From: Chrysopilus asiliformis
Taxonomy: Eukaryota; Arthropoda; Insecta; Diptera; Rhagionidae
NCBI GenBank assembly: GCA_964034945.1
Contig: OZ035964.1
Location: 5,578,895 to 5,642,894 of the forward strand
Direction of reading: 5' to 3'
DNA: 64,000 nt
Shown: in pieces, positions 1-62,270 of the stretch
How positions within the stretch are numbered: position 1 is the stretch's first letter
How the letters are laid out: every line of letters starts with the position of its first letter
Notes under the pieces: generated by a model
The model's database searches: none
What the model was told of the DNA's origin: nothing
What the model saw: the letters and a program-made list of their open reading frames with translations, nothing else
Position numbers and translations under genes: made by a program

Positions 1-1003
1 CAAATATTTTTTTTCGAATTTTTAGAGACTTGTTCTTAGTAGGAAAAATATTTTCGAGACCTTTTCTATTCGGCAAATATTTTTTTCGAATTTTTAAAGA
101 CTTGTTCTTAGTAGGAAAAATATTTCCGGTACCTTTTTCATCCGGCAAATATTTTTTTCAAATTTTTACAGGCTTGTTCTTAGTAGGAAAAATATTTCCG
201 AGACCTTTTCTATCCGGGAAATATTTTTTTCGAATTTTTAGAGGCTTGTTCTAAGTAGGAAAAATATTTCCGAGACATTTTCTACCCGGGAAATATTTTT
301 TTCGAATTTTTAGAGGCTTGTTCTTAGTAGGAAAAATATTTTCTGGACCTTTTCCACCCGGGAAATATTTTTTTGGAATTTTTAGAGACTTGTTCTTAGT
401 AGGAAAAAGATTTTCCAGACATTTTCCACCCGGCAAATATTTTTTTCGAATTTTTACAGGCTTGTTCTTAGTAGGAAAAATATTTCCGAGACATTTTCCA
501 CCCGGGAAATATTTTTTTCGAATTTTTAGAGACTTGTTCTTAGTAGGAAAAATATTTCCGACACCTTTTCTATTCGGCTGATATTTTTTTCGAATTTTTA
601 GAGGCTTGTTTTTAGTAGGAAAAATATTTCCGACACCTTTTTTATTCGGCAAATATTTTTTTCGAATTTTTAGAGACTTGTTCTTAGTAGGAAAAATATT
701 TCCGACACCTTTTCTATTCGGCAAATATTTTTTTCGAATTTTTAGAGGCTTGTTTTTAGTAGGAAAAATATTTCCGAGACATTTTCTACCCGGGAAATAT
801 TTTTTTCGAATTTTTAGAGACTTGTTCTGAGTAGGAAAAATATTTCCGAGACCTTTTCTATTCGTCAAATATTTTTTTCTAATTTTTAGAGACTTGTTCT
901 TAGTAGGAAAAATATTTCCGAGACCTTTTCTATTCGGCAAATATTTTTTTCGAATTTTTAGAGACTTGTTCTTAGTAGGAAAAATATTTCCGGTTCCTTT
1001 TCC
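1..1003. repeat. 72-bp tandem satellite array, cut by the window start (family S72)
   Basis: About 14 head-to-tail copies of a 72-bp unit. Unit starts near 74 and 146 give the period directly. On the plus strand the unit reads through CTTGTTCTTAGTAGG, then AAATATTTCCGAGACC, then TTTTCTATTCGGCAAAT. Copies differ by point changes and two end types (CTATTCGGC and CACCCGGGA). Because 72 is a multiple of three, long stop-free frames appear on both strands, giving 24-residue periodic peptides. These are a consequence of the repeat and are not called as genes. The same family recurs at 19132 (inverted), 37437 and 50520. The left end of the array lies outside the window. Confidence 0.95.
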
Positions 1004-2323
1004 AATTGTGACAATTGTCCGGATATCCTAAAACATGATGCCCTTTTCTGTATTTTTTTTTCGCAAACCAAAAATTCCAAGTGTAAAAACAAACAATATG
1101 AAAAAAAAATTTCCACCTTATTTTGCAACAATCGGAAATACGTAAAACTACTCCTAAATTACCCAAATTAAATGCTATTTCCCTCAAATCCCTATTATCG
1201 CTCCCCCCAATCATCATGTGGCAAAAAAAAAAAAAACGCTGTGATGATAAAATCTGCGATGAATGAAGTTTTGTTGGAAGGTGGGTGTCCCCCCGCATCT
1301 TCCTCCGTATTTACTCCTTGTTTTTACCACATTTTGCCATCTCTGATTGTGCGCGTTTTATTGAAATTCATTTCGGTTTTTGTTTTATGCAAATGCAAAG
1401 CATCATAAATTGTTGCACCAATCGAATGGCTGTTGTTGTCCAAGTGTTTCTCCCACAGCTTCTTATCCATTTGTTTGCCGGCTTCTTACAAACTGACAAG
1501 GGAGTCCGGGTTCATCGGTTGTCGATGTTTGCTCAAATGATTTGGAAGAGAAATACTTACGGAAAACAAGAAAAAGTGTCACTAGAGTGGTGGGAGGGGT
1601 GGCAATAATTTTCGCGTGGTTGTTTATTGAAGACAAGCGATGTTTTCTTTAACGTGCAGAAGGGGGAAGGGGGGCGGGGATACTATTGTTTCAACAAAAC
1701 ACCTGAGATTTATGAAAAAATCAAAGTTAATCGATTTTCAGTAAAAGTTTATCTCAGAAATTGATGTGAAACCAACAGAAGTTGACAAACGAATGTTAAA
1801 AAATCCAAGAAGGTTGTGACAGAACGGTGGTTGATTGGGGGGGAGGAAGTAAATTTGCCAACACTAGAAATAAATATTAGAATTGGAAATCCATTTGCAC
1901 GGACGATGCATTGCTAAAATTCCAATCAATTTATTTTATTTCTGTCCCCTTAAAAGTTTTTGGCGCTAATTTTCAGGTTTTTCAGGATTATTATCGCGAA
2001 ATTCTTGACGAATTCAAGTCCAAAACGGAGGAAATCTCCATTAATTTTGTGGGGTTTCAGTTTTCAAAGTTAATAAATTTTGTTGGGGCCACGAAAAGAC
2101 GGTAGGGAGTAAAAAAGGACAACAAAAAACAACAACAATGAAATTCAACAGTGGTTGGTACTACGGAATTGACGAAGCTCGATTGACGAAGCTCGATTGA
2201 CTGTCGAAAAGGTAACAAGAAATGAATCGCCATTTCGTATAGAATGTGTGATTGTTGCGGTCAAGGGGGTTTTCCATGGTAATGCGACGTTGTGCTTTGA
2301 TTTGTGTTCACCCTTTTCAATGT
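1004..2323. other. A+T-rich spacer without a recognisable gene
   Basis: No open frame here resembles a known protein. Visible content is low-complexity: a 14-nt A run near 1223-1236, a G-rich patch near 1660-1680 and a 14-bp direct tandem duplication of GACGAAGCTCGATT at about 2171-2198. Confidence 0.6.
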
Positions 2324-2395
2324 AAGGTTTTTCCAAGGCCTTTTCTACGCGGGAATATTTTTCAAAGCCTTTCCTATCTAGAAAAATTTACGCCA
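2324..2395. repeat. Degenerate satellite monomers, inverted relative to the next array
   Basis: About two decayed units containing CCAAGGCCTTTTCTACGCGG and CAAAGCCTTTCCTATCT. They match the reverse complement of the 40-nt monomer that builds the following array, so orientation switches within about 100 bp. Confidence 0.55.
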
Positions 2396-2469
2396 GTATA
2401 TGGAACGCAATTGCCACGAAAAATATATCTAATATAGTGGCAAATACATTACTGACAACAAAAATGCCA

Positions 2470-3588
2470 GTAAGAAAGGCAAAAGGCCTCAGAAAACCTA
2501 GGGAACAGTTTCCCTGCACAGAAACGGCTTTTAGAAAACTTTTCTCTGATAAAAAATGCCTCCCAAAATTCGGGGAAAGTTTCCTTTTATAGAAAAGGCC
2601 CCGGAAAACTCAGGGAAAAATTTCCCTGCATAGAAAATGCTTTGGAAATTTTTTCTCTAATGGAAAAGGCATCGGAAAATTCGGGGAAAATTTCCTTTTA
2701 TAGAAAAGGCCCCGGAAAACTCAGGGAAAAATTTCCCGGCACAGAAACGGCTTTTAGAAAACTTTTCTCTGATAAAAAATGCCTCGGAAAATTCGGGGAA
2801 AATTTCCTTTTATAGAAAAGGCCCCGGAAAACTCAGGGAAAAAGTTCCCTGCATAGAAAATGCTTTGGAAATTTTTTCTCTAATAGAAAAAGCATCGGAA
2901 AATTCGGGGAAAATTTCCTTTTATAGAAAAGGCCCCGGAAAACTCAGGGAAAAGTTTCCCTCCACAGAAACGGCTTTTAGAAAACTTTTCTCTGATAAAA
3001 ATGTCTCGGAAAATTCGAGGAAAATTTCCTTTTATAGAAAAGGCCCCGGAAAACTCAGGGAAAAATTTCCCTGCATAGAAAATGCTTTGGAAATTTTTTC
3101 TCTAATAGAAAAGGCATCGGAAAATTCGGGGAAAATTTCCTTTTATAGAAAAGGCCCCGGAAAACTCAGGGAAAAAGTTCCCTGCATAGAAAATGCTTTG
3201 GAAATTTTTTCTCTAATAGAAAAGGCATCGGAAAATTCGGGGAAAATTTCCTTTTATAGAAAAGGCCCCGGAAAACTCAGGGAAAAGTTTCCCTCCACAG
3301 AAACGGCTTTTAGAAAACTTTTCTCTGATAAAAAATGTCTCGGAAAATTCGAGGAAAGTTTCCTTTTATAGAAAAGGCCCCGGAAAACTCAGGGAAAAAT
3401 TTTCCTGCATAGAAAATGCTTTGGAAATTTTTTCTCTAATAGAAAAGGCATCGGAAAATTCGGGGAAAATTTCCTTTTATAGAAAAGGCCCCGGAAAATT
3501 CAGGGAAAAATTTCCCCGCATAGAAAATGCTTTGAAAACAATTTCCTGCATATAAAAGGCCTCGGAAAATTCGAAAGAAAAGTATTTT
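2470..3588. repeat. 111-bp trimeric satellite array (family S111)
   Basis: About ten copies with a 111-bp period: the marker AGAAAAGGCCCCGG recurs at 2591, 2702, 2814, 2925, 3036 and 3147. Each unit splits into three related monomers of 41, 30 and 40 nt, each ending in a variant of ATAGAAAAGG and starting with a CGGAAAA-like box. The 30-nt monomer lacks about 10 nt of the middle. Two unit types alternate: one carries GCATAGAAAATGCTTTGG, the other CACAGAAACGGC. The order is roughly B-A-B-A-B-A-A-B-A, so a higher-order pattern is present. The 168-residue open frame at 2865-3371 is a by-product of the period. Confidence 0.93.
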
Positions 3589-5404: not shown

Positions 5405-7110
5405 AAACTGGATAAGTTTTCCGGATTTTTTTTTGGGTCTTTTCTACTTAGCAAATTTTTTTCTGAATTTTTGGAGAACGCAAATTTTCTTTCCCTTAAT
5501 TTTTGAAGCCCGTTTTCTACGAAATGAAATTTTTCTTGAATTCTTGGATACTTTTTCGAGGCGAGTATTTTTTCTCTTGAGTTTTTGAAGCCTTTTTCAG
5601 GCGATAAAGTTTCTGCCGGATTTTTCCGAGGCCTTTTTAGTTACACAAAATGGTTCTCAAAGCATTTTCTATGCTGGAAAATTTTTCCCGTAATTTTCCG
5701 AGACCTTTTCGTGATGGAAAAGAAATTTCAAAGCCTTTTCTATGCGAGAAATTTTTCTTTTCAATTTTCGAAGCTTTTTTCATGCGATAAAGTTTTTGCC
5801 GGATTTTTCCGAGGCGTTTTTAGTTACAGAAAATGATTTTCAAAGCATTTTCTATGCTGGAAAATTTTTCCCGTAATTTTCCGAGACCTTTTCATGATAG
5901 AAAAGAAATTTCAAAGCCTTTTCTATGCGAGAAATTTTTCTTTTCAATTTCCGAAGCTTTTTTCATGCGATAAAGTTTTTGCCGGATTTTTCCGAGGCGT
6001 TTTTAGTTACAGAAAATGATTTTCAAAGCATTTTCTATGCTGGAAAATTTTTCCCGTAATTTTCCGAGACCTTTTATTAAAAGAAAAGAAATTTCAAAGC
6101 CTTTTCTATGCGAGTATTTTTTCTTTTCACTTTTTGAAGCTTTTTTCAGGCGATAAAGTTTTTTCCGGATTTTTCCGATGCCTTTTTAGTTACAGAAAAT
6201 GATTTTCAAAGCATTTTCTATGCTGGAAAATTTTTCCCGTAATTTTCCGAGACCTTTTCTTAAAAGAAAAGAAATTTCAAAGCCTTTTCTATGCGAAAAT
6301 TTTTTCTTTTCAATTTTCGAAGCTTTTTTCAGGCGATAAAGTTTTTTCCGGATTTTTCCGATGCCTTTTTAGTTACAGAAAATGATTTTCAAAGCATTTT
6401 CTATGCTGGAAAGTTTTTCCCGTAATTTTCCGAGACCTTTTCATGATAGAAAAGAAATTTCAAAGCCTTTTCTATGCGAGAAATTTTTCTTTTCAATTTC
6501 CGAAGCTTTTTTCATGCGATAAAGTTTTTGCCGGATTTTTCCGAGGCGTTTTTAGTTACAGAAAATGATTTTCAAAGCATTTTCTATGCTGGAAAATTTT
6601 TCCCGTAATTTTCCAAGGCATTTTCTTGATATAAAAGAAATTTCAAGCCTTTTCTATGCGAGAATTTCTTCTTTTCAATTGTCAAAGCTTTTTTCAGGCG
6701 ATAAAGTTTTCCCCGGACTTTTCCGAGGAATTTTTAGTTACGGGAAATTGTTTTCAAAGCATTTTCTATGCTGGAAAATTTTTCCCGTAATTTTCCGAGA
6801 CCTTTTCTTAAAAGAAAAGAAATTTCAAAGCCTTTTCTATGCGAGTATTTTTTCTTTTCACTTTTTGAAGCTTTTTTCAGGCGATAACCTAGGAATTTTT
6901 TTCCCCAATTTTTCCAAGCGGCAAATCTTTTTTCTGAATTTTTGGAGGGCTTTTCCAAGAGGTACATCTTTTTTTTGGAATTTTGGAGAGCTTTTCCAAG
7001 CGGTAAAAATTTTCCCTGATCTCTTGAAGGCCTTTTATACGGGACAATTTTTTTCGTCGGAATTTTGGAGCCATTTTTTAAATGCTGGAAAATGATTTCT
7101 GAATCATTTC
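5405..7110. repeat. 183-bp pentameric satellite array with degenerate edges (family S183)
   Basis: The core holds seven units; the marker CAAAGCATTTTCTATGCTGG recurs near 5655, 5838, 6021, 6204, 6387, 6570 and 6752, a period of 183 bp (last step 182). Read on the minus strand, each unit breaks into five related monomers of 31, 41, 40, 30 and 41 nt, all ending in a GAAAA-type box before a C-rich start. This is the same monomer family as the 111-bp array, in opposite orientation. The flanks (5405-5590 and 6893-7110) hold single decayed monomers. The open frames here are interrupted and look like by-products. Confidence 0.93.
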
Positions 7111-10354: not shown

Positions 10355-10745
10355 TGCTGATCGCCGTTGAAGGATTGTTTTTGCAATTGAAGGGTTTTTG
10401 TCGACGTTGTATGGTTTTTGGCCGTCATCGAAGGATTGTTAGTACCAGTGACAAGTTTGTTTTTGCAATTGAAGGGTTTTGGTCGACGTTGTATGGCTCT
10501 TGATCGCCGTTGAAGTATTCTTAGTACCAGTGGAAAGCTTGTTTTTGCAATTGAAGGGTTTTTGTCGACGTTGTATGGTTTTTGGCCGTCATCGAAGGAT
10601 TCTTAGTACCAGTGACAAGTTTGTTTTTGCAATTGAAGGGTTTTTGTCGACGTTGTATGGCTTTTGATCGCCGTTGTATGGTTTTTGACCGTCATTGAGA
10701 GATTTTTTGGTGCCAATGATAGGTTTTGGCGTCCATTGAAAGCAT
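10355..10745. repeat. 82-bp tandem array
   Basis: The marker TTGCAATTGAAGGGTTTT recurs at 10381, 10463, 10545 and 10627, an exact 82-bp step. Each unit looks like three diverged subunits of about 27 nt (variants of GTTGAAGGATT and GTTGTATGGTTTTTG). The reverse complement of the marker is shared with the 174-bp array at 13076-14740, so the two arrays belong to one family. Confidence 0.88.
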
Positions 10746-19131: not shown

Positions 19132-19860
19132 AATAAAATCGGGAATATTTTTCCAACCTTAGTTCGAAAAAAAATATTTCCCGAATAGAAAAAGTCTCGA
19201 AATTTTTTTTTCCCACTAAGAACAAGCCTCTGGAAATTCAAAAACAAACTCCCGAATAGAAAAGTTCTCGAAAAAAAATTTTCCACTAAAAACAAGCCCC
19301 TAAAAATTCGAAAAAAATGCTTTCCGAATAGAAAATGCCTCGAAAATAATTTTCCCACTAAGAAAAAGCCTCTAAAAATTCGAAAAAAAAAATTTCCCGA
19401 ATAGAAAAGTTCTCGGAAAAATTTTTCCCACTGAAAACAAGCCCCTAAAAATTCGAAAAAGTACTTTCCGAATAGAAAATGCCTCGAAAATAATTTTCCC
19501 ACTAAAAACAAGCCCCTAAAAATTCGAAAAAAATGCTTTCCGAATAGAAAAACCCTAGAAATTAATTTTCCCACTAAAAACAAGCCTCTCAAAATTCGAA
19601 AAAAATTCTTTCCGAATAGAAAATGCCTCGAAAATAATTTTCCCACTAAGAAAAAGCCTCTAAAAATTCGAAAAAAAAAATTTCCCGAATAGAAAAGTTC
19701 TCGGAAAAATTTTTCCCACTGAAAACAAGCCCCTAAAAATTCGAAAAAGTACTTTCCGAATAGAAAATGCCTCGAAAATAATTTTCCCACTAAAAACAAG
19801 TCTCTCAAAATCCGAAAAAAATATTTCCCGAATAGAAAAGCTCTCGGAAAATTTTTTCAC
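19132..19860. repeat. 72-bp satellite array, inverted orientation (family S72)
   Basis: About ten copies of the S72 unit in the opposite orientation to the other three S72 arrays: CCACTAAGAACAAGCCTC and CCGAATAGAAAATGCCTCG on the plus strand. About 192 bp starting at 19321 recurs at 19609, an offset of 288 bp (four units), so a four-unit higher-order repeat is present. The 233-residue minus-strand frame (19107-19808) shows the same duplicated peptide block and is a by-product. Confidence 0.92.
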
Positions 19861-20964: not shown

Positions 20965-21180
20965 GATGGGAAAAAATTTCAAATAACGAAAATCCCTTGG
21001 AAAATTCGGGAAAAATAGTTTCAGCTCAGAAAATTCTTCGAAAAATTCAGGAAAAATTTTCCAGCTCCATAAATCCCTCGGAAAATTCAGGGAAAAAATT
21101 GCAAGCATCTAAAATTCTTTGAAAAACTCGGGGATTTAATTCAGGGGGTTTTCTTGCCCCCGCCCCCTCCTCTTAGAAAA
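20965..21180. repeat. Degenerate 40-nt monomers (left flank of dispersed copy A)
   Basis: About five decayed units with the core CTCGGAAAATTCAGGGAAAA and CAGCTC-type joins. Two more units lie at 21400-21500. They match the monomer array at 25445-26435. Confidence 0.75.
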
Positions 21181-21480: not shown

Positions 21481-22451
21481 AAGAACCGAACATTTCACTT
21501 TGAACGTTGAAATATTTTGTTTGTGTTGTGAAAATTCATTAAAAAAATCCTTGAAAAATTAATTTTCATTCATATCTCTGTTTGAAACGATGAAAAAATC
21601 GTTTTTTAAATTTTTCTTCGTCAAATTTCAATAAATTGGGAAAATTATTAATTTTTAATTATTTTTCTGAATAGGTTTTGGAACACAACCCTAAAATCCG
21701 ATTACACAAAGGACTACAACATGACATCAACGAAAATGATTCGTGTCGCTGTGTTCATACGGCTGAATTTAGTATATCCCACAGCAGCTGGGATTTATAT
21801 CGATGATGAAATTGCAAAATTGAGGAAGAAGCGGCCATTTTGATAACTCGAGTAGATCGGATACAGCTTCGAAAAAAAAAACAAACTCATTTTTCGGTGT
21901 TAAAAATCGGAAATCGGGATGTAAATCAAGTGAAACATTAAATTACGGGAAATTTTGATTTAATTTGCATAAAGTGGAATCGTAAATTACTCTTTTTATA
22001 CCAAAAACGGAAACTGCAAATCGCGACAAATGAAGCGGAGTCACATTGTGGCAAAATGGATTCTAGCGAACTAAATTTCAAGTGAAATAATAATAAATAT
22101 GTGTTTCAGTGTTTAAAAATCGCGACCGTTGCTTTAAAAAATTGTGAAAATCGAGCCGCTAAAGAGATCGGTAATGGAGTCGCCGCCAGACCGGATCCGG
22201 TCAAGAAATTCCCTTTTTATTAAAGTTCTTTAGCGGCTTTAAGACATTTTTCTACTGGGATCATCGTTTCTTTTGAGATCATCGTTTCCTGGTATCTTCG
22301 GTAAGTCCAAAAATTATTAATATTTTAATTTTTTTGTCGTCTTAAAAGTGTATTTTCAAGGGAATTCTGGCCTTTTGTAGGAATTTTGGGGGACTTTTCT
22401 CCGGAAGTTGGAGAAACTTTTACGAATTTCGTTTTGGTGTCGGTTATTTTT
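21481..22451 (+). repeat. Dispersed repeat of about 970 bp, copy A (promoter/first-exon-like)
   Basis: Matches copy B (56803-57784) along its whole length by eye, and copy C (57920-58905) more weakly. Conserved landmarks: CCTAAAATCCGATTACACAA, a 40-codon open frame (21721-21843), GCGGCCATTTTG (a YY1/Pho-like word), a stem with arms GCCGCTAAAGA (22155-22165) and TCTTTAGCGGC (22227-22237), the 14-bp palindrome GACCGGATCCGGTC (22189-22202), two GATCATCGTTTC words and a splice-donor-like TCTTCG/GTAAGT at 22300/22301. Decayed 40-nt monomers lie on both sides. It could be a duplicated promoter and 5' exon, or an undescribed non-autonomous element. I see no terminal inverted repeats. Confidence 0.75.
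21721..21843 (+). CDS. Possible 40-codon small open frame in dispersed copy A
   Basis: ATG at 21721, stop TGA at 21841-21843. The peptide starts MTSTKMIRV, has a middle YPTAAG box and a charged end (DDEIAKLRKKRPF). I do not recognise it. The same frame in copy B (57037-57162) is intact at 41 codons: two differences are silent (the Val after Ala, and the Asn codon), three change residues (Phe to Cys, Tyr to Ser, Ile to Val), and the stop is shifted by one codon. The start context is ACAACATGA, with A at -3. A short frame surviving in two copies may be chance, since both copies are young. The YY1-like word falls inside its last codons. It may be a peptide encoded in a transcript leader, or nothing. 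Confidence 0.25.
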   Translation: MTSTKMIRVAVFIRLNLVYPTAAGIYIDDEIAKLRKKRPF

Positions 22452-22574: not shown

Positions 22575-22870
22575 ATAACAAATCCAGGAAATACTTTCCG
22601 GTCGGAAAAACATGATTTTCGAAAATTCGGGAAAAAATTAATTCAGCTACAAAAATTCCTCGGAAAATCTAGAAAAAAATGTTTAACCCGAAAAAGCCTT
22701 GAAAAATTCAGGAAAAACTTTCCAGCTCCGAAAATTACTCGGAAAATTCAGGGAAAAAATTTACAGCTTCCAAAAAATCCCTTGGAAAATACAAAAAAAA
22801 CATTTCATCCGAAAAAATTCCTAGCAAAATTCAGGAAAAAGAAAATGTCAAGCATTAACAATTCTTGATG
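22575..22870. repeat. Degenerate 40-nt monomers (right flank of dispersed copy A)
   Basis: About seven decayed units with AAAATTCGGGAAAA or AAAATTCAGGAAAA cores and CAGCTC joins, the same family as the left flank. Immediately after, a 33-bp block beginning AACGTTACGCGAAAAACAA is duplicated (22871 and 22904). Confidence 0.75.
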
Positions 22871-25210: not shown

Positions 25211-25241
<31 letters not shown>

Positions 25242-35690: not shown

Positions 35691-37436
35691 AGGTATTGTT
35701 AGGGACGAGGAGTTCTCAGAATGAGTTTTGGCTGAAAAAAAAAACGTTTTCCGAACACTTCCGCAATCGATTCGTGCAATTTTACCGAAAGCGCTGCGGA
35801 TTTTTCCGCTTTTCAGCTTGTCAAGAGGGGTTTCTGATCCCGTTTTCTATGTTATTTTCGCTCCCTTTCTCACTATTTAGCATAATAAAAAATTGTTTTT
35901 GTGAGAACTTTTTACACCACCCCCCTCTCCCCCCACGCCCGATTCTCTCCCTTTCCGGCCACTGGGTGAATTTTTCTACGCTATTTTTGAATTTTCAAAT
36001 ATGTATCCCAAAAATTGCTTTTCAACTCCCCAGAATAGGGGCTTCTAAAACACCCAATTTTTTGCGAAAAAGTTTTGTTGAAGATGGTTTGGGGGGGGGG
36101 GGGGTGTATGAAGATGTGAAAATAACTAAAAACCAATTTTTGTTTTGTTGCCGGGGCCTATTTTGAAAATCGACATGTTTTTATTTGACGCCACTAACCC
36201 CCAACGCTGGTGTCTCGATTTTTAAAACTATATGAGAATTTCCCCCAAGATTTCTTACATTCAGGCCATACTAGGGCGCGCATTTATTATAAAAGTTCAA
36301 ACCAAAAAAAAAAAACACAAAGAAAACATCCCAACGTCGGACCACATAAGTCGTTCAACAAATAAAATATTCTAAAAATATCCAAAAAAAAAAAAAATAA
36401 ATTCCGTAAAAAATAAGAAAGTCCAATTAAACTAAGTTATTGTCATCATAAGATTTGCCTGAATAAAAATCTCTGCGCCATCGTCGTCGTTGTTTGTTCC
36501 ATCGTTTGTGTCTTGAGAAAAATGTCTTTTCTTCTTCGTTTAATCATAGATATTCCGCTTGAAACCGAAGAAAAACAACGAAAATCAGGAAATAAAAGAA
36601 AATTTTTTTTTTAATTGTTTTTCAAGGATTTTCTTGGATTTATGAAACGACACTATTTTGTGGTGGTTTTTTATATCCTCAACTGTTGTTTAAAGACGCA
36701 TAAAAATCACTTGTTATACGCGTTTTTAATTGTGTGTAAACCGTTATAAATGATAAACAGTCTTCGGGTCTAGGCAATAGCGGCCGTAAGAAATAGGGAA
36801 CTCCCAGAAAGTTTTTGAACAAAAAAAAAACAAATCATGTGGAATTTTCTCGAGTTTTCTTCCAATTTCCACTGGAATTTCGTCCCTGAAATAAAAACCC
36901 GGCCCCACAGTTTAATTACGGTTTCTTGCATTCACCATAGGGGGATTTTTTGTTTCTATTCTGTACGCCCAATCCATCACCGCCGGTGTCGAAAACGGAT
37001 GTCGTTTCTCAGGATGTGCCGCTCCGTACACATTTAAGGGGTTTTTCTTTTAGTGGGTTAATGTCAAGAGAATCTAATCATGGTTTTGTTAGAGGCAGGC
37101 AATATTCGTAGATATACGAAACCCGTAGGGATTGTAACTAATGGCGGGCACGAAAAATAGTTACTTGGTTGAACGTTTCAACAAAAGCGTAGAATTCGCT
37201 GTGGCCGGATTGATTTTCGCTCTCGTAATATTAATTACTACTCTCGGAAGTTGTAATGAAAAAACAAAACGATGAAGTCAAAGCGGGGGATTTTCAATCG
37301 AAAACTTTTGCACTTTTCGTTTTTGTAGATATCAGCTATAAAACATCTCATCTGGTCACCCCAATATGTGCCTTATTTGGAAACCAGTGCAGAGATCATT
37401 CCCAAAAAAAAGAAGGAATTCTTACTAGCGTAATTT
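35691..37436. other. Spacer without a recognisable gene
   Basis: A 14-nt G run lies at 36091-36104. The 156-codon frame at 35696-36166 crosses that run and has no domain I recognise. Confidence 0.5.
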
Positions 37437-40400
37437 TTTCGAATTTTTAGAGGTTTGTTCTTAGTAGGAAAAATATTTCCAAGACCTTTTCTATCCGGGA
37501 AATATTTTTCTCAAATTTTTAGAGCCCTGTTCTGAGTAGGAAAAATATTTCCGAGACCTTTTCTATCCGGGAAATAATTTTCTCGAATTTTTAGAGCCCT
37601 GTTCTGAGTAGGAAAAATATTTCCGAGACCTTTTCTATCCGGGAAATATTTTTCTCGAATTTTTAGAGCCTTGTTCTGAGTAGGAAAAATATTTCCGAGA
37701 CCTTTTCTATCCGGGAAATATTTTTCTCGGATTTTTAGAGCCTTGTTCTGAGTAGGAAAAATATTTCCGAGACCTTTTCTATCCGGGAAATATTTTTCTC
37801 GAATTTTTAGAGCCTTGTTCTGAGTAGGAAAAATATTTCCGAGGCCTTTTCTATTCGCGAAATATTTTTCTCGAATTTTTAGAACCTTGTTCTGAGTAGG
37901 AAAAATATTTCCGAGACCTTTTCTATCCGGGAAATATTTTTCTCGAATTTTTAGAGCCTTGTTCTGAGTAGGAAAAATATTTCCGAGGCCTTTTCTATTC
38001 GCGAAGTATTTTTCTCGAATTTTTAGAGCCTTGTTCTGAGTAGGAAAAATATTTCCGAGACCTTTTCTATCCGGGAAATATTTTTCTCGAATTTTTAGAG
38101 CCTTGTTCTGAGTAGGAAAAATATTTCCGAGACCTTTTCTATCCGGGAAATATTTTTCTCGGTTTTTTAGAGCCTTGTTCTGAGTAGGAAAAATATTTCC
38201 GAGACCTTTTCTATCCGGGAAATATTTTTCTCAAATTTTTAGAACCTTGTTCTGAGTAGGAAAAATATTTCCGAGGCCTTTTCTATTCGCGAAATATTTT
38301 TCTCGAATTTTTAGAGCCTTGTTCTGAGTAGGAAAAATATTTCCGAGACCTTTTCTATCCGGAAAATATTTTTCTCGAATTTTTAGATGCTTGTTCTGAG
38401 TAGGAAGAATATTTCCGAGACCTTTTCTATCCGGGAAATATTTTTCTCGAATTTTTAGAACCTGGTTCTGAGTAGGAAAAATATTTCCGAGGCCTTTTCT
38501 ATTCGCGAAGTATTTTTCTCGAATTTGTAGAGCCTTGTTCTGAGTAGGAAAAATATTTCCGAGGCCTTTTCTATTCGCGAAATATTTTTCTCGAATTTTT
38601 AGAGCCTTGTTCTGAGTAGGAAAAATATTTCCGAGACCTTTTCTATCCGGGAAATATTTTTCTCGGATTTTTAGAGCCTTGTTCTGAGTAGGAAAAATAT
38701 TTCCGAGGCCTTTTCTATCCGGGAAATATTTTTCTCGAATTTTTAGAACCTTGTTCTGAGTAGGAAAAATATTTCCGAGACCTTTTCTATCCGGGAAATA
38801 TTTTTCTCGAATTTTTAGAACCTTGTTCTGAGTAGGAAAAATATTTCCGAGACCTTTTCTATCCGGGAAATATTTTTCTCGAATTTTTAGAACCTTGTTC
38901 TGAGTAGGAAAAATATTTTCGAGGCCCTTTCTATTCGCGAAGTATTTTTCTCGAATTTTTAGAGCCTTGTTCTGAGTAGGAAAAATATTTCCGAGGCCTT
39001 TTCTATTCGCGAAATATTTTTCTCGAATTTTTAGAGCCTTGTTCTGAGTAGGAAAAATATTTCCGAGACCTTTTCTATCCGGGAAATATTTTTCTCGAAT
39101 TTTAGAGCCTTGTTCCGAGTAGGAAAAATATTTCCGAGGCCTTTTCTATCCGGGAAATATTTTTCTCGAATTTTTAGAGCCTTGTTCTGAGTAGGAAAAA
39201 TATTTCCGAGACCTTTTCTATCCGGGAAATATATTTCTCGGATTTTTAGAGCCTTGTTCTGAGTAGGAAAAATATTTCCGAGACCTTTTCTATCCGGGAA
39301 ATATTTTTCTCGAATTTTTAGAACCTTGTTCTGAGTAGGAAAAATATTTCCGAGACCTTTTCTATCCGGGAAATATTTTTCTCGAATTTTAGAGCCTTGT
39401 TCCGAGTAGGAAAAATATTTCCGAGACCTTTTCTATCCGGGAAATATTTTTCTTGAATTTTTAGAACCTTGTTCTGAGTAGGAAAAATATTTCCGAGGCC
39501 TTTTCTATCCGGGAAATATTTTTCTCGAATTTTTAGAGCCTTGTTCTGAGTAGGAAAAATATTTCCGAGACCTTTTCTATCCGGGAAATATTTTTCTCGA
39601 ATTTTTAGAGCCTTGTTCTGAGTAGGAAAAATATTTCCGAGACCTTTTCTATCCGGAAAATATTTTTCTCGAATTTTTAGATGCTTGTTCTGAGTAGGAA
39701 AAATATTTTCGAGACCTTTTCTATCCGGGAAATATTTTTCTCGAATTTTTAGAGCCTTGTTCTGAGTAGAAAAAATATTTCTGAGACCTTTTCTATCCGG
39801 GAAATATTTTTCTCGAATTTTTAGAGCCTTGTTCTGAGTAGGAAAAATTTTTCCGAGGCCTTTTCTATTCGCGAAGTATTTTTCTCGAATTTTTAGAGTC
39901 TTGTTCTGAGTAGGAAAAATATTTCTGAGACCTTTTTTATCCGGGAAATATTTTTCTCGAATTTTTAGAGCCTTGTTCTGAGTAGAAAAAATATTTCCGA
40001 GACCTTTTCTATCCGGGAAATATTTTTCTCGAATTTTTAGAGCCTTGTTCTGAGTAGGAAAAATATTTCCGAGGCTTTTCTATTCACGAAATATTTTTCT
40101 CGAATTTTTAGAGCCTTGTTCTGAGTAGGAAAAATATTTCCGAGACCTTTTCTATCCGGGAAATATTTTTCTCGAATTTTTAGAGCCTTGTTCTGAGTAG
40201 GAAAAATATTTCCGAGGCCTTTTCTATTCGGGAAATATTTTTCTCGAATTTTGAGAGCCTTGTTCTGAGTAGGAAAAATATTTTTGAGACCTTTTCTATC
40301 CGGGAAATATTTTTCTCGAATTTTTAGAGCCTTGTTCTGAGTAGAAAAAATATTTCCGAGACCTTTTCTATCCGGGAAATATTTTTCTTGAATTTTTAGA

Positions 40401-43135
40401 GCCTTGTTCTGAGTAGAAAAAATATTTCCGAGACCTTTTCTATCCGGGAAATATTTTTCTCGAATTTTTAGAGCCTTGTTCTGAGTAGGAAAAATATTTC
40501 CGAGACCTTTTCTATCCGGGAAATATTTTTCTCGGATTTTTAGAGCCTTGTTCTGAGTAGGAAAAATATTTCCGAGACCTTTTCTATCCGGGAAATATTT
40601 TTCTCGAATTTTTAGAGCCTTGTTCTGAGTAGGAAAAATATTTCCGAGGCCTTTTCTATTCGCGAAATATTTTTCTCGAATTTTTAGAGCCTTGTTCTGA
40701 GTAGGAAAAATATTTCCGAGGCCTTTTCTATTCGCGAAATATTTTTCTCGAATTTTTAGAGCCTTGTTCTGAGTAGGAAAAATATTTCCGAGACCTTTTC
40801 TATCCGGGGAATATTTTTCTCGAATTTTTAGAACCTTGTTCTGAGTAGGAAAAATATTTCCGAGACCTTTTCTAGCCGGAAAATATTTTTCTCGAATTTT
40901 TAGAACCTTGTTCTGAGTAGGAAAAATATTTCCGAGGCCTTTTCTATTCGCGAAATATTTTTCTCGAATTTTTAGAGCCTTGTTCTGAGTAGGAAAAATA
41001 TTTCCGAGACCTTTTCTATCCGGGAAATATTTTTCTCGAATTTTTAGAACCTTGTTCTGAGTAGGAAAAATATTTCCGAGACCTTTTCTATCCGGGAAAT
41101 ATTTTTCTCGGATTTTTAGAGCCTTGTTCTGAGTAGGAAAAATATTTCCGAGGCCTTTTCTATTCGCGAAATAATTTTCTCGAATTTTTAGAACCTTGTT
41201 CTGAGTAGGAAAAATATTTCCGAGACCTTTTCTATCCGGGAAATATTTTTCTCGAATTTTTAGAGCCTTGTTCTGAGTAGGAAAAATATTTCCGAGACCT
41301 TTTCTATCCGGGAAATATTTTTCTCGAATTTTTAGAACCTTGTTCTGAGTAGGAAAAATATTTCCGAGGCCTTTTCTATTCGCGAAGTATTTTTCTCGAA
41401 TTTTTAGAGCCTTGTTCTGAGTAGGAAAAATATTTCCGAGACCTTTTCTATCCGGGAAATATTTTTCTCGAATTTTTAGAGCCTTGTTCTGAGTAGGAAA
41501 AATATTTCCGAGACCTTTTCTATCCGGGAAATATTTTTCTCGGATTTTTAGAGCCTTGTTCTGAGTAGGAAAAATATTTCCGAGACCTTTTCTGTCCGGG
41601 AAATATTTTTCTCGAATTTTTAGAACCTTGTTCTGAGTAGGAAAAATATTTCCGAGGCCTTTTCTATTCGCGAAATATTTTTCTCGAATTTTTAGAGCCT
41701 TGTTCTGAGTAGGAAAAATATTTCCGAGGCCTTTTCTATTCGCGAAAAATTTTTCTCGAATTTTTAGAGCCTTGTTCTGAGTAGGAAAAATATTTCCGAG
41801 ACCTTTTCTATCCGGGAAATATTTTTCTCGAATTTTTAGAACCTTGTTCTGAGTAGGAAAAATATTTCCGAGACCTTTTCTATCCGGAAAATATTTTTCT
41901 CGAATTTTTAGAGCCTTGTTCTGAGTAGGAAAAATATTTCCGAGACCTTTTCTATCCGGGAAATATTTTTCTCGAATTTTTAGAGCCTTGTTCTGAGTAG
42001 GAAAAATATTTCCGAGACCTTTTCTATCCGGGAAATATTTTTCTCGAATTTTAGAGCCTTGTTTCGAGTAGGAAAAATATTTCCGAGACCTTTTCTATCC
42101 GGGAAATATTTTTCTTGAATTTTTAGAACCTTGTTCTGAGTAGGAAAAATATTTCCGAGGCCTTTTCTATCCGGGAAATATTTTTCTCGAATTTTAAGAG
42201 CCTTGTTCTGAGTAGGAAAAATATTTCCGAGACCTTTTCTATCCGGAAAATATTTTTCTCGAATTTTTAGATGCTTGTTTTGAGTAGGAAAAATATTTCC
42301 GAGACCTTTTCTATCCGGGAAATATTTTTCTCGAATGTTTAGAGCCTTGTTCTGAGTAGGAAAAATATTTCTGAGACCTTTTCTATCCGGGAAATATTTT
42401 TCTCGAATTTTTAGAGCCTTGTTCTGAGTAGGAAAAATATTTCCGGGGCCTTTTCTATTTGCGAAGTATTTTTCTCGAATTTTTAGAGCCTTGTTCTGAG
42501 TAGAAAAAATATTTCCGAGACCTTTTCTATCCGGGAAATATTTTTCTTGAATTTTTAGAGCCTTGTTCTGAGTAGGAAAAATATTTCCGAGGCCTTTTCT
42601 ATTCGCGAAATATTTTTCTCGAATTTTGAGAGCCTTGTTTTGAGTAAGAAAAATATTTCTGAGACCTTTTCTATCCGGGAAATATTTTTCTCGAATTTTT
42701 AGAACCTTGTTCTGAGTAGGAAAAATATTTCCGAGACCTTTTCTATCCGGGAAATATTTTTCTCGAATTTTTAGAACCTTGTTCTGAGTAGGAAAAATAT
42801 TTCCGAGACCTTTTCTATCCGGGAAATATTTTTCTCGGATTTTTAGAGCCTTGTTCTGAGTAGGAAAAATATTTCCGAAGCCTTTTCTATTCGCGAAATA
42901 TTTTTCTCGAATTTTTAGAACCTTGTTCTGAGTAGGAAAAATATTTCCGAGACCTTTTCTATCCGGGAAATATTTTTCTCGAATTTTTAGAGCCTTGTTC
43001 AGAGTAGGAAAAATATTTCCGAGACCTTTTCTATCCGGAAAATATTTTTCTCGAATTTTTAGAGCCTTGTTCTGAGTAGGAAAAATATTTCCGAGACCTT
43101 TTCTATCCGGGAAAAATTTTTTCCGAATTTTTTAG
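37437..43135. repeat. Large 72-bp satellite array, about 79 copies (family S72)
   Basis: 5.7 kb of head-to-tail 72-bp units: GCCTTGTTCTGAGTAGGAAA, AATATTTCCGAGACCTTTTC, TATCCGGGAAATATTTTTCT, CGAATTTTTAGA. Two main end types are mixed, GACC with ATCCGGGA and GGCC with ATTCGCGA. Rare variants (a unit with one T deleted, and GATGCTTG) recur as groups, showing block duplications. Read on the minus strand the unit splits into a 40-nt and a 32-nt monomer. Unlike the other arrays it has stops in every frame, so it gives no long open frame. The unit copies are very alike, which implies recent homogenisation. Confidence 0.97.
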
Positions 43136-50519: not shown

Positions 50520-52392
50520 TTGTTCTGTTTATGAAAAATTCTTCCGAGACCTGTTCTATGCGGGAAATATTTTTTTCGAATTGTTAGTCGCTTGTTCTGA
50601 GTAAGAAAAATCTTTCCGAGACCTTTTCTATACGGGAAATATTTTTTTCGAATTTTTAGAAGCTTGTCCTAAGTAGGAAAAATACTTCCGAGACCTTTTC
50701 TATGCGGGAAATATTTTTTTCGAATTGTTAGAAGCTTGTCCTAAGTAGGAAAAATACTTCCGAGACCTTTTCTATCCGGGAAATATTTTTTTCGAATTTT
50801 TAGAAGCTTGTCCTAAGTAGGAAAAATACTTCCGAGACCTTTTCTATCCGGGAAATATTTTTTTCGAATTGTTAGAAGCTTGTCCTAAGTAGGAAAAATA
50901 CTTTCGATACCTTTTCTATACGGGAAATATTTTTTTCGAATTTTTAGAGGCTAGTTCCTAGTCGGAAAAATACTTCCGAGACCTTTTCTATGTGGGAAAT
51001 ATTTTTTTCGAATTTTTAGAAGCTTGTCCTAAGTAGTAAAAATACTTCCGAGACCTTTTCTATGCGGGAAATATTTTTTTCGAATTTTTAGAAGCTTGTC
51101 CTAAGTAGGAAAAATACTTCCGAGACCTTTTCTATGCGGGAAATATTTTTTTCGAATTGTTAGAAGCTTGTCCTAAGTAGGAAAAATACTTCCGAGACCT
51201 TTTCTATCCGGGAAATATTTTTTTCGAATTTTTAGAAGCTTGTCCTAAGTAGGAAAAATACTTCCGAGACCTTTTCTATCCGGGAAATATTTTTTTCGAA
51301 TTGTTAGAAGCTTGTCCTAAGTAGGAAAAATACTTTCGATACCTTTTCTATACGGGAAATATTTTTTTCGAATTTTTAGAGGCTAGTTCCTAGTCGGAAA
51401 AATACTTCCGAGACCTTTTCTATGTGGGAAATATTTTTTTCGAATTTTTAGAAGCTTGTCCTAAGTGGTAAAAATACTTCCGAGACCTTTTCTATGCGGG
51501 AAATATTTTTTTCGAATTTTTAGAAGCTTGTCCTAAGTAGGAAAAATACTTCCGAGACCTTTTCTATCCGGGAAATATTTTTTCCGAATTTTTAGAAGCT
51601 TGTCCTAAGTAGGAAAAATACTTCCGAGACCTTTTCTATACGGGAAATATTTTTTTCGAATTGTTAGAAGCTTGTCCTAAGTAGGAAAAATACTTCCGAG
51701 ACCTTTTCTATATGGGAAATATTTTTTTCGAATTTTTAGAAGCTTGTCCTAAGTAGGAAAAATACTTCCGAGACATTTTCTATGCGGGAAATATTTTTTT
51801 CGAATTATTAGAAACTTGTCCTAAGTAGGAAAAATACTTCCGAGACCTTTTCAATCCGGGAAATATTTTTTTCGAATTTTTAGAGGCTAGTTCCTAGTCG
51901 GAAAAATACTTCCGAGACCTTTTCTATGTGGGAAATATTTTTTTCGAATTTTTAGAAGCTTGTCCTAAGTGGTAAAAATACTTCCGAGACCTTTTCTATG
52001 CGGGAAATATTTTTTTCGAATTTTTAGAAGCTTGTCCTAAGTAGGAAAAATACTTCCGAGACCTTTTCTATCCGGGAAATATTTTTTCCGAATTTTTAGA
52101 AGCTTGTCCTAAGTAGGAAAAATACTTCCGAGACCTTTTCTATACGGGAAATATTTTTTTCGAATTGTTAGAAGCTTGTCCTAAGTAGGAAAAATACTTC
52201 CGAGACCTTTTCTATATGGGAAATATTTTTTTCGAATTTTTAGAAGCTTGTCCTAAGTAGGAAAAATACTTCCGAGACATTTTCTATGCGGGAAATATTT
52301 TTTTCGAATTATTAGAAACTTGTCCTAAGTAGGAAAAATACTTCCGAGACCTTTTCAATCCGGGAAATATTTTTTTCGAATTTTTGGAGGCG
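50520..52392. repeat. 72-bp satellite array with 432/504-bp higher-order repeats (family S72)
   Basis: About 26 units of GAAGCTTGTCCTAAGTAGGA, AAAATACTTCCGAGACCTTT, TCTATCCGGGAAATATTTTT, TTCGAATTGTTA. The marker unit AGAGGCTAGTTCCTAGTCGG starts at 50946, 51378 and 51882, steps of 432 (six units) and 504 (seven units). By eye, 51378-51881 and 51882-52385 are identical apart from the last few bases. It sits in the same orientation as the arrays at 1 and 37437 but forms a distinct subfamily (CCTAAGTAGG, ATACTTCC). Confidence 0.96.
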
Positions 52393-56354: not shown

Positions 56355-56802
56355 GTACTCGAAAAATTTGGTAAAACATTTTCAACAACCGAAAATCCCT
56401 TGTAAAATGCTGGAAAAAATTTTCCAGGTCCGAAAATCCCTCGGAAAATTCAGGAATAAAAATTTTCCACATCCGAAAATCCGTTGGAGAAATGAAGAAA
56501 AAAAATTCATTGATAATCCTTTGAAAAGTTCAGGGATTTAATTTGGAAATTTTTCTCACTGCCAGTCCTCTTCCCTGTTACGAAAGTCACTCGGAAAACT
56601 CAAAAAAAGAAATCCATCTCAAAAAATCCCTCGGAAAATTCAGGAAAACATTTTCAAAAACCCAAAATGCCTTGTAAAACTCAGGAAAAAATTTGCAATT
56701 GTGAACATTCCTTGGAAAATTCATGAAAAATTTTTCAACAACCGAAAACCCCTGAGAAGATTTAAGAAAAATTTTCCAGCTGTGATTCAGAAAAATATTT
56801 TC
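56355..56802. repeat. Degenerate 40-nt monomers (left flank of dispersed copy B)
   Basis: About ten decayed units with CCCTCGGAAAATTCAGGAA cores. As at copy A, the last monomers run straight into the dispersed repeat through an ACCGAACATTT junction, so junction and monomers were copied together. Confidence 0.75.
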
Positions 56803-57784: not shown

Positions 57785-57919
57785 CACCTTAGAAAAGCTT
57801 GAAAGTATCTAGGGCCGGCAAATATTGCCATCTACTTGGTAAAGGAGAGGAAAAAATCCTATTTTCAAAGTTTTATTCGGTTTCTAAAACTCTCTTCGAA
57901 TCCTAAGATTTTATTTTTA

Positions 57920-58905
57920 ACATTGAAATATTTTGTTCGTATTATGAAATTTTATTAAAAAAAAGTCCTTGAAAAATTATTTACCATTCATATCTCTGTT
58001 TAAAACGATAAAAAAGTCTTTTTTTTAACTTTTCTTCGTCAAATTTCAATAAATTGGGAAAATTATTAATTTTTAATTATTTTTCTACATTGGTTTTGTA
58101 ACCCAACCCTAAAATCCGATAAGCCAAAGGACTACAACATGCGCGCATACGGTTGAATTTGGTCTATCCGCCAGGAGCTGTAATAGACCAAATTCAGCCG
58201 TATTGCGCATTGTGTATCGTGCGCCGATACGAATCATTTTCGTTGGTGTCGTGTCGTCATGATCATTTTGCAAAGTTAAGGAAGGACCGCCATTTTGGAC
58301 GCTCTCATAGATCGGAGATAACTTTGAGATAAAATCTAATTTTTCGGTGTTAAAAATCGGTAACCGAGTCGTAAATAAAGTGAAAAAATAAATTATAGGA
58401 AATTGTGGATTCAATATGCAAAAAATGCTATCGAAAACTAGCCTTTTTTATATGAAAATCGGAAATTAAAAATCGCGACAAGAGAAGTGTAATTTAATTG
58501 TAGCAAAATGAAGTTTAGCGATCGAAGTTTTAAGCGAAATAATGAAAAAAGTGTTTGTGTTAAAAAATCACGAAAATGAAGTCTGAAAGTCGAGCCGCTG
58601 AAGAAATTATCAAAAGACTTTAAAATTATACAATTATCGTGCAATTTTCGATACGATTTCCGGCTTTGGATGCGTATTAGCCGGGGCGTCGGTAATGGAG
58701 TTATTGCCAGACTCCATTCGGTCAAGAGTTGCCGACAATTTCCATTTTATTAAAATTCTTTAACGACTTTAAGACATTTTTCTACACGGATCATCGTTTC
58801 CTTGACATAATCGTTTCCTGATATTTCCAGTAAGTCCAAAAATTATTAATATTTTAATTTTTTATACTTAAATATGTCCATTTTCGTCTTAAAAGTGTCT
58901 TTTAT
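57920..58905 (+). repeat. Dispersed repeat, diverged copy C with an internal inversion
   Basis: Aligns with copies A and B at both ends: TCGTCAAATTTCAATAAATT, AAAATCCGATAAGCC, then later TAAGACATTTTTCTAC, ATCATCGTTTCC and CCA/GTAAGTCC (donor-like GT at 58830-58831). In the middle, the segment around the small open frame is present as an inverted copy: ATACGAATCATTTTCGTTGG (58218 region) is the complement of the AACGAAAATGATTCGT of A and B. The arms 58143-58167 and 58183-58208 form an inverted repeat. The 14-bp palindrome is lost. Confidence 0.65.
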
Positions 58906-60059: not shown

Positions 60060-60310
60060 GATATTGGTCGCAATTTTTACCCCCCCCCCCCCCCCCCCCA
60101 CCTCTTTTCTTACTCTTTTTGCCACTCCCAGCTGGCAAAAGAGGTGATTTTGGACGCAATTTTCGCGTCCTTCTCCCCTCCGCTTGCAAAAGTGGTAATT
60201 TGGGACGCAATTTTCGCCTCCTTTTCCCCTTAGCCTGCAGAAAAGGTGATTTTGAACGCCTTTATTCCTTATGCTTGCTCTTCCTCACCGCACCTGCCAT
60301 AATGGATGCA
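60060..60310. repeat. Degenerate repeats of about 55 bp with a 20-nt C run
   Basis: Three to four loose copies of a GCAAAAGAGGTGATTTTGGA, CGCAATTTTCGC, CCTTTTCCCC pattern. The C run is at 60080-60099. The last part (CTTGCTCTTCCTCACCGCAC near 60274) recurs twice at 61490-61650. Confidence 0.6.
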
Positions 60311-61299
60311 TCAAAACGCTCTACAAAAGACGATATACCCCCCCCCCCCACCCGCCCTGCATTTCTCTCTTCGTTTAAAAGAGGAGGTCGTTTAAAAGTA
60401 ATTTCCGAGAAATTTCCGATTACCCAAGGAGTGTTCAGAACTTTGTCCCGACCATGTGGTAGTATAAGAAAATCATCTGCTGTTCTCATAACACATTTTT
60501 TTTTAAGATGAAAAAGTTTTATCTGTTTTCTTTTTCTGTGTGATGTGCTGTGAAAGGGTGTCACAAGCCACCTTCGAAAAATGCTTTAAAATAACGGACT
60601 TTGAGTATCCGCAAATGACTATTTTTTTTTCTATTTTTCTATTTTTTCAGCAATAAAAGATACTAAAAAGTACTTAAAAAAAAGACACACACACATTTTC
60701 TATTGCGGGCCGCACCGCAATTGGACATTAGAGAGTATAGCGGGTCATATAAATTTTTAATGAATCTCAAGTACAATCTCGGCTCATTTAAATTGTTTTA
60801 AATCGTGATTATTAAAAAAGAAAAAAAAGAAAAGATGTTTTTGTCGTTTTCCCATTTGTTGTGTTTCACCTCTTCTTCTTTTTAATGTGAATTTTATGTT
60901 ACTTTCTATTCGTCGTAGCCTCCAATTTGATCGAAATAACAAAAATTCATCATTAACAAAAAATTGTGTTTTTATTATCGCAATTACTTTGTCTCATTAA
61001 AATTACATTCTTTTCTTATAGTTTTCTATAAATTTGAGGGAGAAAAATGGTTTTTGAAGCATCACTCTTCGCTTTTTTTTCCATTTTCTTTTTTTCTTTT
61101 TTGGTGTCAAATGAATTTTTAATAAAGGAACAAAAACCGGTAAACCTCTTTGGGAGTTAATCAAGTATTTTTAAATAATTAAAATAACTACAGGTGCTAG
61201 GCGATAAAAGCCGATAAGTCATTTTTCTTAACGGAAATTTGAAGTCATTTTAATAGGAAGGCTTCGAAATATCGTGCAAAAACAACTTACAAGCACTAT
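60311..61299. other. T-rich spacer without a recognisable gene
   Basis: A 12-nt C run lies at 60338-60349, with many T and A runs. No feature is identified. Confidence 0.5.
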
Positions 61300-62270
61300 T
61301 GAGTAGTCATTCGAATTTTCAGGTGCTTGGAAAAATTTTCACGCGCGAAAAACGTCTTGGAAAATCGAAGGAAAATCGAGGGAAAACTTTTTTTGCGCGG
61401 AAAATGCTTGAAGAAATCGGAGAAATTTCTTTCCCGTCCAAAAGGGTTTGGGAAAATGTTTTTCCGAGCGTAAACCCTTTTATCCCTTAAGCTTGCTCTT
61501 CCTCACCGCACCCCCGAAGGGGGGGGGGGGGCTTCGCCCTGCCAAAATGCTTGGAAAAATCGGAGAAATTTCTTTCCCGTCCAAAAGGGTTTGGAAAAAT
61601 GTTTTTCCGCGCGTAAACCCTTTTATCCCTTAAGCTTGCTCTTCCTCACCGCACCCCCGAAGGGGGGGGGGGGGCTTCGCCCTGCCAAAATGCTTGGAAA
61701 AATCGGAGAAATTTCTTTCCCGTCCAAAAGGGTTTGGAAAAATGTTTTTCCGCGCGTAAACCCATTGGAAAATCGAAGAAAATTTTTTCCCGCCCGGAAA
61801 ATTTGTGAAAAAATTTTTTCGCCCCATAAATGCTTGCAAAAAATGTATTGCGCTAAAACACGCATTGAAAATTTCTTAAGAAAAATTTTCACGCGCGAAA
61901 ACATTTTGGAAAATCGAAGTTTGCAAAAATCGGCGAATTTTTTTTTTTTGTCCAAAAGGGTTGGGAAAAATCGAGGAAAAATTTTCCCACGCAAAAAACC
62001 TCTTGCAAATTTCGTGAGAAACATTTACCGCGCAAAAACCGTATTGAAAAATTCTGAAGATAAATTTTCACACGCGAAAACCTTTTGGAAAATCAATGGA
62101 AAATTTTCCTCGCGCGGAAAATGCTTGGAAAAATCAGAGAAATTTCTTTTCCGTCCAAAATGTCTTGTAAAATCAAGAGAAAATTTTTCCCGCGCTAAAA
62201 TGCTTGGAAAATTGGAGGAAAATTTTTCCGTGCCAAAAAATACTTCATAGAAAATTTAAGGACGATTTTT
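61300..62270. repeat. Degenerate 40-nt monomer array with a 143-bp tandem duplication
   Basis: Loose monomers with GGAAAATCG and GAAAATTTTTCCCGCGC cores, each about 40 nt, the family of 25445-26435. Within it a block of about 143 bp is duplicated (about 61410-61552 and 61553-61695): CGGAGAAATTTCTTTCCCG, CGTAAACCCTTTTATCCC, AAGCTTGCTCTTCCTCACC, then a G13 run flanked by CGAAG and CTTCG. The 219-codon plus-strand frame (61591-62250) is a by-product. Confidence 0.85.

What the first reader, a model, noticed from the sequence alone, without database searches (positions are those of the whole stretch)
1..62270. One 40-nt monomer explains the 40, 72, 81, 111 and 183-bp satellites
Splitting each unit at its CTCGGAAAA-like starts gives 72 = 40+32, 81 = 40+41, 111 = 41+30+40 and 183 = 31+41+40+30+41, with the plain monomer array at 25445-26435. 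Ten or so loci in 62 kb therefore come from one sequence at five oligomer states. A single window rarely shows monomer, dimer, trimer and pentamer forms together.
Basis: seen in the sequence. Interest (0 to 1): 0.8.

Follow-up and report, generated by a model that had tools for sequence, protein, structure and literature searches.

The report
Two-letter satellite family on fly chromosome
On the smallest chromosome of a snipe fly, many different tandem-repeat arrays are built from one 40-letter unit in two lengths (about 41 and 31 letters) strung together in different orders, a clear but not unprecedented case of one repeat growing into several higher-order forms.

Summary
Thirteen arrays in the window (16,392 of 64,000 bp) are one repeat family: 87 of 96 array-to-array profile tests beat their Markov nulls; 9 fail, 4 of them from the 81-bp unit. 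The rule is a long monomer L (mean 40.6 nt) and a short one S (mean 31.1 nt, L minus about ten bases). 72 = SL, 144 = (SL)2, 81 = LL, 111 = LSL, 183 = SLSLL. Same-register monomers are much more alike than different-register ones in 183, 111 and 81, so these are true higher-order repeats. The 51/153, 57, 82/164, 175 and 33,964 arrays do not belong. The genome is almost certainly the snipe fly Chrysopilus asiliformis, and the window lies on its smallest chromosome (10.88 Mb). The only Eph and Ephrin matches found are on that chromosome, so it is most likely Muller element F, the ancestral dipteran X. The family fills 14% of systematic samples there and none of 70 kb sampled from the other four chromosomes. 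Most likely it is a chromosome-enriched satellite made by slippage, unequal exchange and segmental copying. A chromosome-marking role is possible but untested.

The parts
1..992 (-). 72-bp (S+L) array, 72a
   Evidence: strand is relative to the CTCGGAAAA orientation
2481..3573 (+). 111-bp (L+S+L) higher-order array; family profiles reach 2324-3627
5553..6887 (-). 183-bp (S+L+S+L+L) higher-order array
6888..7095 (-). short 41-nt monomer stretch continuing the 183 array
19163..19858 (+).
20968..21132 (+). short monomer array near body-element copy 1; further monomers at 21407-21494
21581..22336 (+). core of body element copy 1 (28 places in the genome by my grouping, 26 on C5 and 2 on C4); homology 21463-22458 is shared with the 56.8-kb and C4 copies
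22600..22840 (+). short monomer array
25445..26435 (+). plain monomer array (24 aligned units, mean 83% to consensus) with an internal duplication of neighbouring monomers at about 26038-26240 (read by eye)
28217..29548 (+). 81-bp (L+L) higher-order array
37433..43132 (-). 72-bp (S+L) array, 72b, about 79 units
50533..52385 (-). 72-bp (S+L) array, 72c
56363..56785 (+). short divergent monomer array joined to body-element copy 2 (56785-57784)
57902..58903 (+). body-element copy 3, no array found beside it
61401..62270 (+). divergent array of the family, partly overlaid by a 143-bp unit
   Evidence: (183 profile 83.8 bits vs null 15.4)

Best explanation
A satellite DNA family concentrated on chromosome 5 (Muller element F, probably the X) of Chrysopilus asiliformis. 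An ancestral ~41-nt monomer L gave rise to a short form S by loss of one ~10-nt segment between two GGAAAA direct repeats. Neighbouring monomers were then amplified as groups (SL, LL, LSL, SLSLL) by unequal exchange or slippage, each group homogenising within its own array. Some arrays were copied to new places together with flanking DNA, including a repeated element of roughly 0.75-1 kb that is itself found almost only on this chromosome. Shown: homology of the arrays, the S/L rule, register homogenisation, enrichment on this chromosome, and the shared array-plus-element junctions. Inferred: the deletion and exchange mechanisms, the direction of change (L to S), and that no special function is needed.
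For: Homology against nulls. In all eight arrays that hold 10 or more S monomers, and in 111 (6 S), the missing columns overlap, lying within or next to columns 11-21 of the ruler. Same- vs different-register p-distance: 183 0.098/0.290, 111 0.039/0.208, 81 0.118/0.286, 144 0.088/0.144. Local duplication inside the plain array. Other C5 loci show further periods (123, 159, 163, 307, 311 bp). Systematic samples: C5 8,399 of 60,000 bp, 4 of 15 stretches; C1-C4 0 of 70,000 bp, 0 of 24. Whole-genome search with the doubled 40-mer: 81 matches, 79 on C5 (about 23 of them in the window itself) and 2 on C4. C5 as Muller F: the only Eph ligand-binding matches and the only Ephrin match are on C5 (Eph exons confirmed against solved structures); both genes are marked as chromosome 4 of D. 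melanogaster in PMC1431729 (passage). Body element: 57 matching pieces, grouped by me into 26 places on C5 and 2 on C4; 5 of these 28 have the array beside them.
Against: The profiles were trained on this window, so diverged relatives on C1-C4 could be missed; one C4 array exists (L016). 9 of 96 pairwise tests fail. In the consensus tree S of 111 and 183 pair together apart from most S of the 72/144 type, and S of 72b falls beside an L unit of L014, so one origin of S is not shown and the tree is unreliable. Short segments in two C5 loci (L010, L011) lack other columns, and those at 61.4 kb only partly the same. The ruler alignment pulls deletions to one place. Of the 28 body-element places, 1 (copy 3) has no array and 22 were not fetched, so that element may explain little of the dispersal. 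Whole-genome searches with the 72, 111, 183 and 175 units did not complete.
Confidence: 0.75

Rival explanations
1. The arrays are a chromosome address: a satellite kept on the F element/X because chromatin or small-RNA machinery uses it to recognise that chromosome, as proposed for 1.688 repeats on the Drosophila X.
For: Interspersed arrays at places from 2.0 to 9.6 Mb of the 10.9-Mb C5 and almost none found elsewhere; C5 carries Eph and Ephrin. A link between 1.688, POF and chromosome-wide regulation is discussed in PMC7072490 (abstract).
Against: An unrelated repeat, the body element, is similarly confined (26 of 28 places on C5), so C5 looks like a general repeat sink. 11 of 15 systematic C5 stretches hold none of the family. 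The 3.2 kb fetched around the Eph exons hold no array. No expression, chromatin or small-RNA data. The same abstract reports that a deletion of 1.688 repeat did not detectably affect male dosage compensation.
Confidence: 0.1
2. The family is mainly the centromeric or pericentromeric satellite of chromosome 5, and the dispersed arrays are overspill.
For: Higher-order repeats are typical of some centromeres (my knowledge); matches cluster near 5.3-5.6 Mb and 9.2-9.6 Mb, though the window itself is in the first cluster.
Against: The arrays seen are short (about 0.1-7.3 kb), interspersed with other DNA and spread over much of C5; C1-C4 samples lack it.
Confidence: 0.1
3. The similarity is convergent A-tract-rich sequence under a DNA-bending or nucleosome constraint, not common descent.
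For: Monomers are rich in A-tracts, many unit lengths lie near multiples of 10.2 bp, and a ~10-bp AAA/TTT periodicity exists in unmasked DNA of the window.
Against: Scores exceed order-1, order-2 and order-3 composition nulls; identity at the 17 G/C columns averages 0.53 against 0.30 expected, though the lowest array pair is 0.26. In the plain array 13.5 bp, not 10 bp, is the strongest A-tract period. The ~10-bp background is also seen in the C1-C4 loci, and the systematic C5 loci peak at 16.3 bp instead.
Confidence: 0.03

Closest known systems
Higher-order repeat satellites in general (alpha satellite, insect satDNAs; recalled, with search listings)
   Same: Plain monomeric arrays plus multimer units whose same-register monomers are homogenised.
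   Different: Very short monomer, two length classes that differ by about ten bases, and at least five unit types within one 64-kb stretch.
1.688 (359-bp) satellite of the Drosophila X (PMC7072490 abstract; PMC11228850 and PMC7642928 search listing only)
   Same: One satellite family in several arrays spread along one particular chromosome.
   Different: No sequence relation was tested; monomer ~40 nt instead of ~359; on the Muller F-like chromosome of a snipe fly; no functional data.
Tetris TIR-220 satellites of D. virilis (PMC4079207, abstract)
   Same: Tandem repeats found both beside copies of a dispersed element and as longer free arrays.
   Different: No terminal inverted repeats were identified here; the array lies beside 5 of 28 element places, 22 of which were not fetched.
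DINE-1 Helitron repeats on Drosophila F elements (PMC4426361, PMC1431729, passages)
   Same: Repeats enriched on Muller F.
   Different: Helitron ends were not tested; here much of the enriched DNA is a satellite.

Membership tests
Satellite DNA with higher-order repeats | Head-to-tail arrays of related monomers | tested here: met
Satellite DNA with higher-order repeats | Same-position monomers of neighbouring multimers more alike than different-position ones | tested here: met
   183, 111, 81 and, less strongly, 144; for 72b only 21 different-register pairs (0.065 vs 0.063), not informative
Satellite DNA with higher-order repeats | Heterochromatic or centromeric location | not testable with these tools
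   needs FISH or chromatin data
1.688-like chromosome-marking satellite | Enrichment on one chromosome | tested here: met
1.688-like chromosome-marking satellite | Sequence homology to 1.688 | not tested
   no copy of 1.688 was fetched
1.688-like chromosome-marking satellite | siRNA production or effect on linked gene expression | not testable with these tools
   no expression data
Transposon-derived satellite (Tetris type) | Monomer array beside several copies of one element with a shared junction | tested here: met
   5 of 28 places; 22 not fetched
Transposon-derived satellite (Tetris type) | Element with recognisable transposon ends, target-site duplications or transposase | tested here: inconclusive
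   matches often end at query 102/111 and 857; no terminal repeats seen by eye in the aligned edges; no systematic test
Muller element F (for the host chromosome) | Carries Eph and Ephrin | tested here: met
   two further gene searches (PF08332, PF00346) were sent once each and not answered

The most novel reading that the evidence does not exclude
The S/L satellite is a chromosome-identity sequence of the ancestral dipteran X (Muller F) in snipe flies: a modular code of ~31- and ~41-nt units spread along one chromosome and read by chromosome-wide regulation, a parallel to 1.688 and POF that evolved on the chromosome where POF acts in Drosophila.
Probability: 0.07. Interest if true: 0.8.

Novelty: new member of a known kind. 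Interest (0 to 1): 0.45.

Why it matters
It is an unusually full record of one satellite growing from plain monomers to several higher-order forms within a single chromosome region, with a simple two-letter rule that can be checked along the chromosome and in related flies. It sits on what looks like Muller F, the X of ancestral flies, so it offers a test of whether satellites build up there as mere sediment or as a chromosome label.

Tried and rejected
Genes in the window: Pfam on 10 of the 456 stop-to-stop frames listed gave only matches below the curated cut-offs, so no gene was found but most frames were not searched. Protein search with the reading frame through the first 72 array: none of 7,995 scored candidates reached E 0.001. 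A-tract phasing as the organising principle: present but weak, and seen on C1-C4 too. The idea that C5 is a Y chromosome, raised by its small size, was dropped because the specimen is female (PMC12371324) and C5 carries Eph and Ephrin. Frames in sampled C5 loci: 5 were scanned with Pfam, none over the cut-off. Rfam and tRNA: nothing. The plain-array HMM left out 8 of the 25 segments: two outside the length limits and six (m1, m7, m9, m10, m13, m24) set aside by hand. The script crashed before its shuffle control, which I did not run again.
Full report
What was checked. A 40-column profile built from 17 of the 25 segments cut from the plain array 25445-26435 was run on the window and on five order-1 and five order-3 Markov windows: at 10 bits or more there are 65 real hits, 23 of them in the training array, against 0.4 per null window for either order. 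Beyond the training array it finds the 111, 183, 6888-7095, 20968, 22600 and 56363 arrays and four places just outside arrays, but not the 72, 144, 81 and 61.4-kb arrays (best 4.4 to 8.3 bits). Profiles of each array's own dimer unit close the gap: against 60 order-1 and 60 order-2 nulls per target, 87 of 96 directed tests among the 13 arrays pass, with consistent strands (for 72b the target was 2,000 of 5,700 bp). Nine fail: plain to 81 and to 144; 81 to plain, 20968, 22600 and 56363; 72a and 72c to 22600; 72b to 56363. So the 81 array belongs through intermediates (111, 72b, 144). Profiles of the 51/153, 57 and 33,964 arrays match no other array above the nulls. The 82/164 and 175 arrays match each other (175 to 82: 10.6 bits against null 3.5; 82 to 175: 14.9 against 13.9); 82 also touches 72c at 3.2 bits against 2.6, which I count as nothing.

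The rule. One search left the 72b unit uncut and broke off before its shuffle control; cuts the 72b array into 79 S and 79 L. Over 418 window segments, 154 are 29-33 nt, 237 are 38-43 nt, 4 are 34-37 nt and 23 have other lengths. The short form S lacks overlapping columns, within or next to ruler columns 11-21, in the eight arrays with 10 or more S and in 111. Of the three other arrays with at least 3 short segments, 61.4 kb shows this only partly and L010 and L011 not at all. The lost stretch lies between two GGAAAA repeats, so a slippage deletion is plausible (inference). The ruler favours one gap position, so some of this sameness is built in. Same-register monomers are closer than different-register ones: 0.098 vs 0.290 in 183, 0.039 vs 0.208 in 111, 0.118 vs 0.286 in 81, 0.088 vs 0.144 in 144. 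Among 208 sampled L monomers of 24 arrays the mean p-distance is 0.182 within and 0.279 between arrays, and the nearest neighbour is in the same array for 58%. The plain array holds a local duplication of neighbouring monomers (by eye). In the consensus tree S of 111 and 183 pair together, most S of the 72/144 type lie apart from them, and S of 72b falls beside an L unit of L014; with 40 nt this tree decides little, and S may have arisen more than once.

Where it is. The window is G000:C5:5578895-5642894 in a 429-Mb, 42-sequence assembly. COX1 from its 16,384-bp contig is closest, among the 120 listed of 7,998 scored, to Symphoromyia (94%, a snipe fly by my knowledge) and Tabanus (93%). Chromosome lengths (117.0, 116.07, 114.8, 68.48, 10.88 Mb), total and mitochondrial length agree with Chrysopilus asiliformis idChrAsil3.1 (PMC12371324, part 1 of 4 read; its 41 scaffolds plus the mitochondrion would make 42). 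So the identification is by matching numbers, not by a species label. That specimen is female and its sex chromosomes were not identified; the authors warn that homology is unreliable for finding them. The only matches in the genome to the Eph ligand-binding domain (solved Eph structures) and to Ephrin are on C5. Both genes are marked as chromosome 4 of D. melanogaster in PMC1431729 (passage). C5 is therefore most likely Muller element F, the ancestral X of Diptera (PMC13231274, passages). In Rhagio lineola, same family and same count of chromosomes, the smallest is the X by read coverage of a male (PMC12501595, one section and passages). That C5 is the X remains inference.

Enrichment. Systematic samples: 8,399 of 60,000 bp on C5 (4 of 15 stretches) against 0 of 70,000 bp on C1-C4 (0 of 24 stretches) at 20 bits; nine ends of small contigs gave 0 of 4,500 bp. 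The whole-genome search with the doubled 40-mer gave 81 matches, 79 on C5 (about 23 in the window itself, by my count) and 2 on C4, with the tool's warning that counts are lower bounds. Tandem repeats of period 20 or more fill 11,153 of 60,000 bp on C5 and 1,025 of 70,000 bp elsewhere. The profiles were trained on this window, so diverged relatives elsewhere may be missed.

Dispersal. Five places share the array beside a body of up to ~1 kb: window 21.4 kb and 56.8 kb, C5 5.418 Mb and 7.03 Mb, and C4 65.07 Mb. The body is a repeat with 57 matching pieces that I group into 26 places on C5 and 2 on C4; ends that recur near query 102/111 and 857 suggest a discrete element. Copy 3 (57.9 kb) has no array; the other 22 places were not fetched, and their matches start at query 51 or later, so they do not show the array-side junction. 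This is one route of dispersal, not shown to be the main one.

Mechanism and rivals. The most economical account is a satellite evolving by deletion, unequal exchange and segmental copying on a chromosome that collects repeats. That the unrelated body element is similarly confined to C5 speaks against a special role for the satellite. The 51-bp family was found in 2 of 7 hit-chosen C5 loci and in none of the 15 systematic C5 stretches, 4 C1-C4 stretches or the C4 hit locus, too little to say more. A chromosome-marking role like that discussed for 1.688 and POF (PMC7072490, abstract) is compatible with the distribution but has no functional support here. A centromeric role is disfavoured by short, spread arrays. 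Convergent A-tract sequence is disfavoured by the nulls.

Known or new. Higher-order satellites, chromosome-enriched satellites and satellites tied to mobile elements are all known kinds (my knowledge; search listings; PMC4079207 abstract). The search for Chrysopilus with satellite returned one paper, on barcoding of horseflies (listing), so I found no published account of this family in that library.

Noticed in passing
21581-22336, 56.9-57.7 kb, 57.9-58.9 kb: A repeated element with 26 places on C5 and 2 on C4 (my grouping), with splice-like signals and a short reading frame of about 36-41 codons kept in three aligned copies (read by eye); could be an amplified gene fragment or a mobile element.
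   Followed up: partly
10375-10688 and 13107-14740: The 82/164-bp and 175-bp arrays are weakly related to each other and unrelated to the S/L family.
   Followed up: partly
8386-9236; L011:121-1108: The 51/102/153-bp family recurs at C5 5.325 Mb and weakly at 5.335 Mb.
   Followed up: partly
24737-25450: The GACG tetranucleotide tract and its flanks match loci on C2, C4 and C5, so it seems to belong to a dispersed element.
   Followed up: no
30900-31285: Dispersed repeat with a 392-bp, 90% identical match on C1 (L022).
   Followed up: no
61401-61763: A 143-bp unit in 2.5 copies at 98% matches, with a long G run, inside a diverged S/L array: looks like a recent duplication.
   Followed up: no
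window and sampled loci, unmasked DNA: AAA/TTT spacing shows a ~10-bp periodicity outside the arrays in the window, in chosen C5 loci and in C1-C4 loci, but not in the systematic C5 loci (peak 16.3 bp).
   Followed up: partly
arrays of the window: Several unrelated unit lengths (51, 82, 143, 175) and the S/L sums lie near multiples of 10.2 bp; the 57-bp unit does not. Too few families to test.
   Followed up: no
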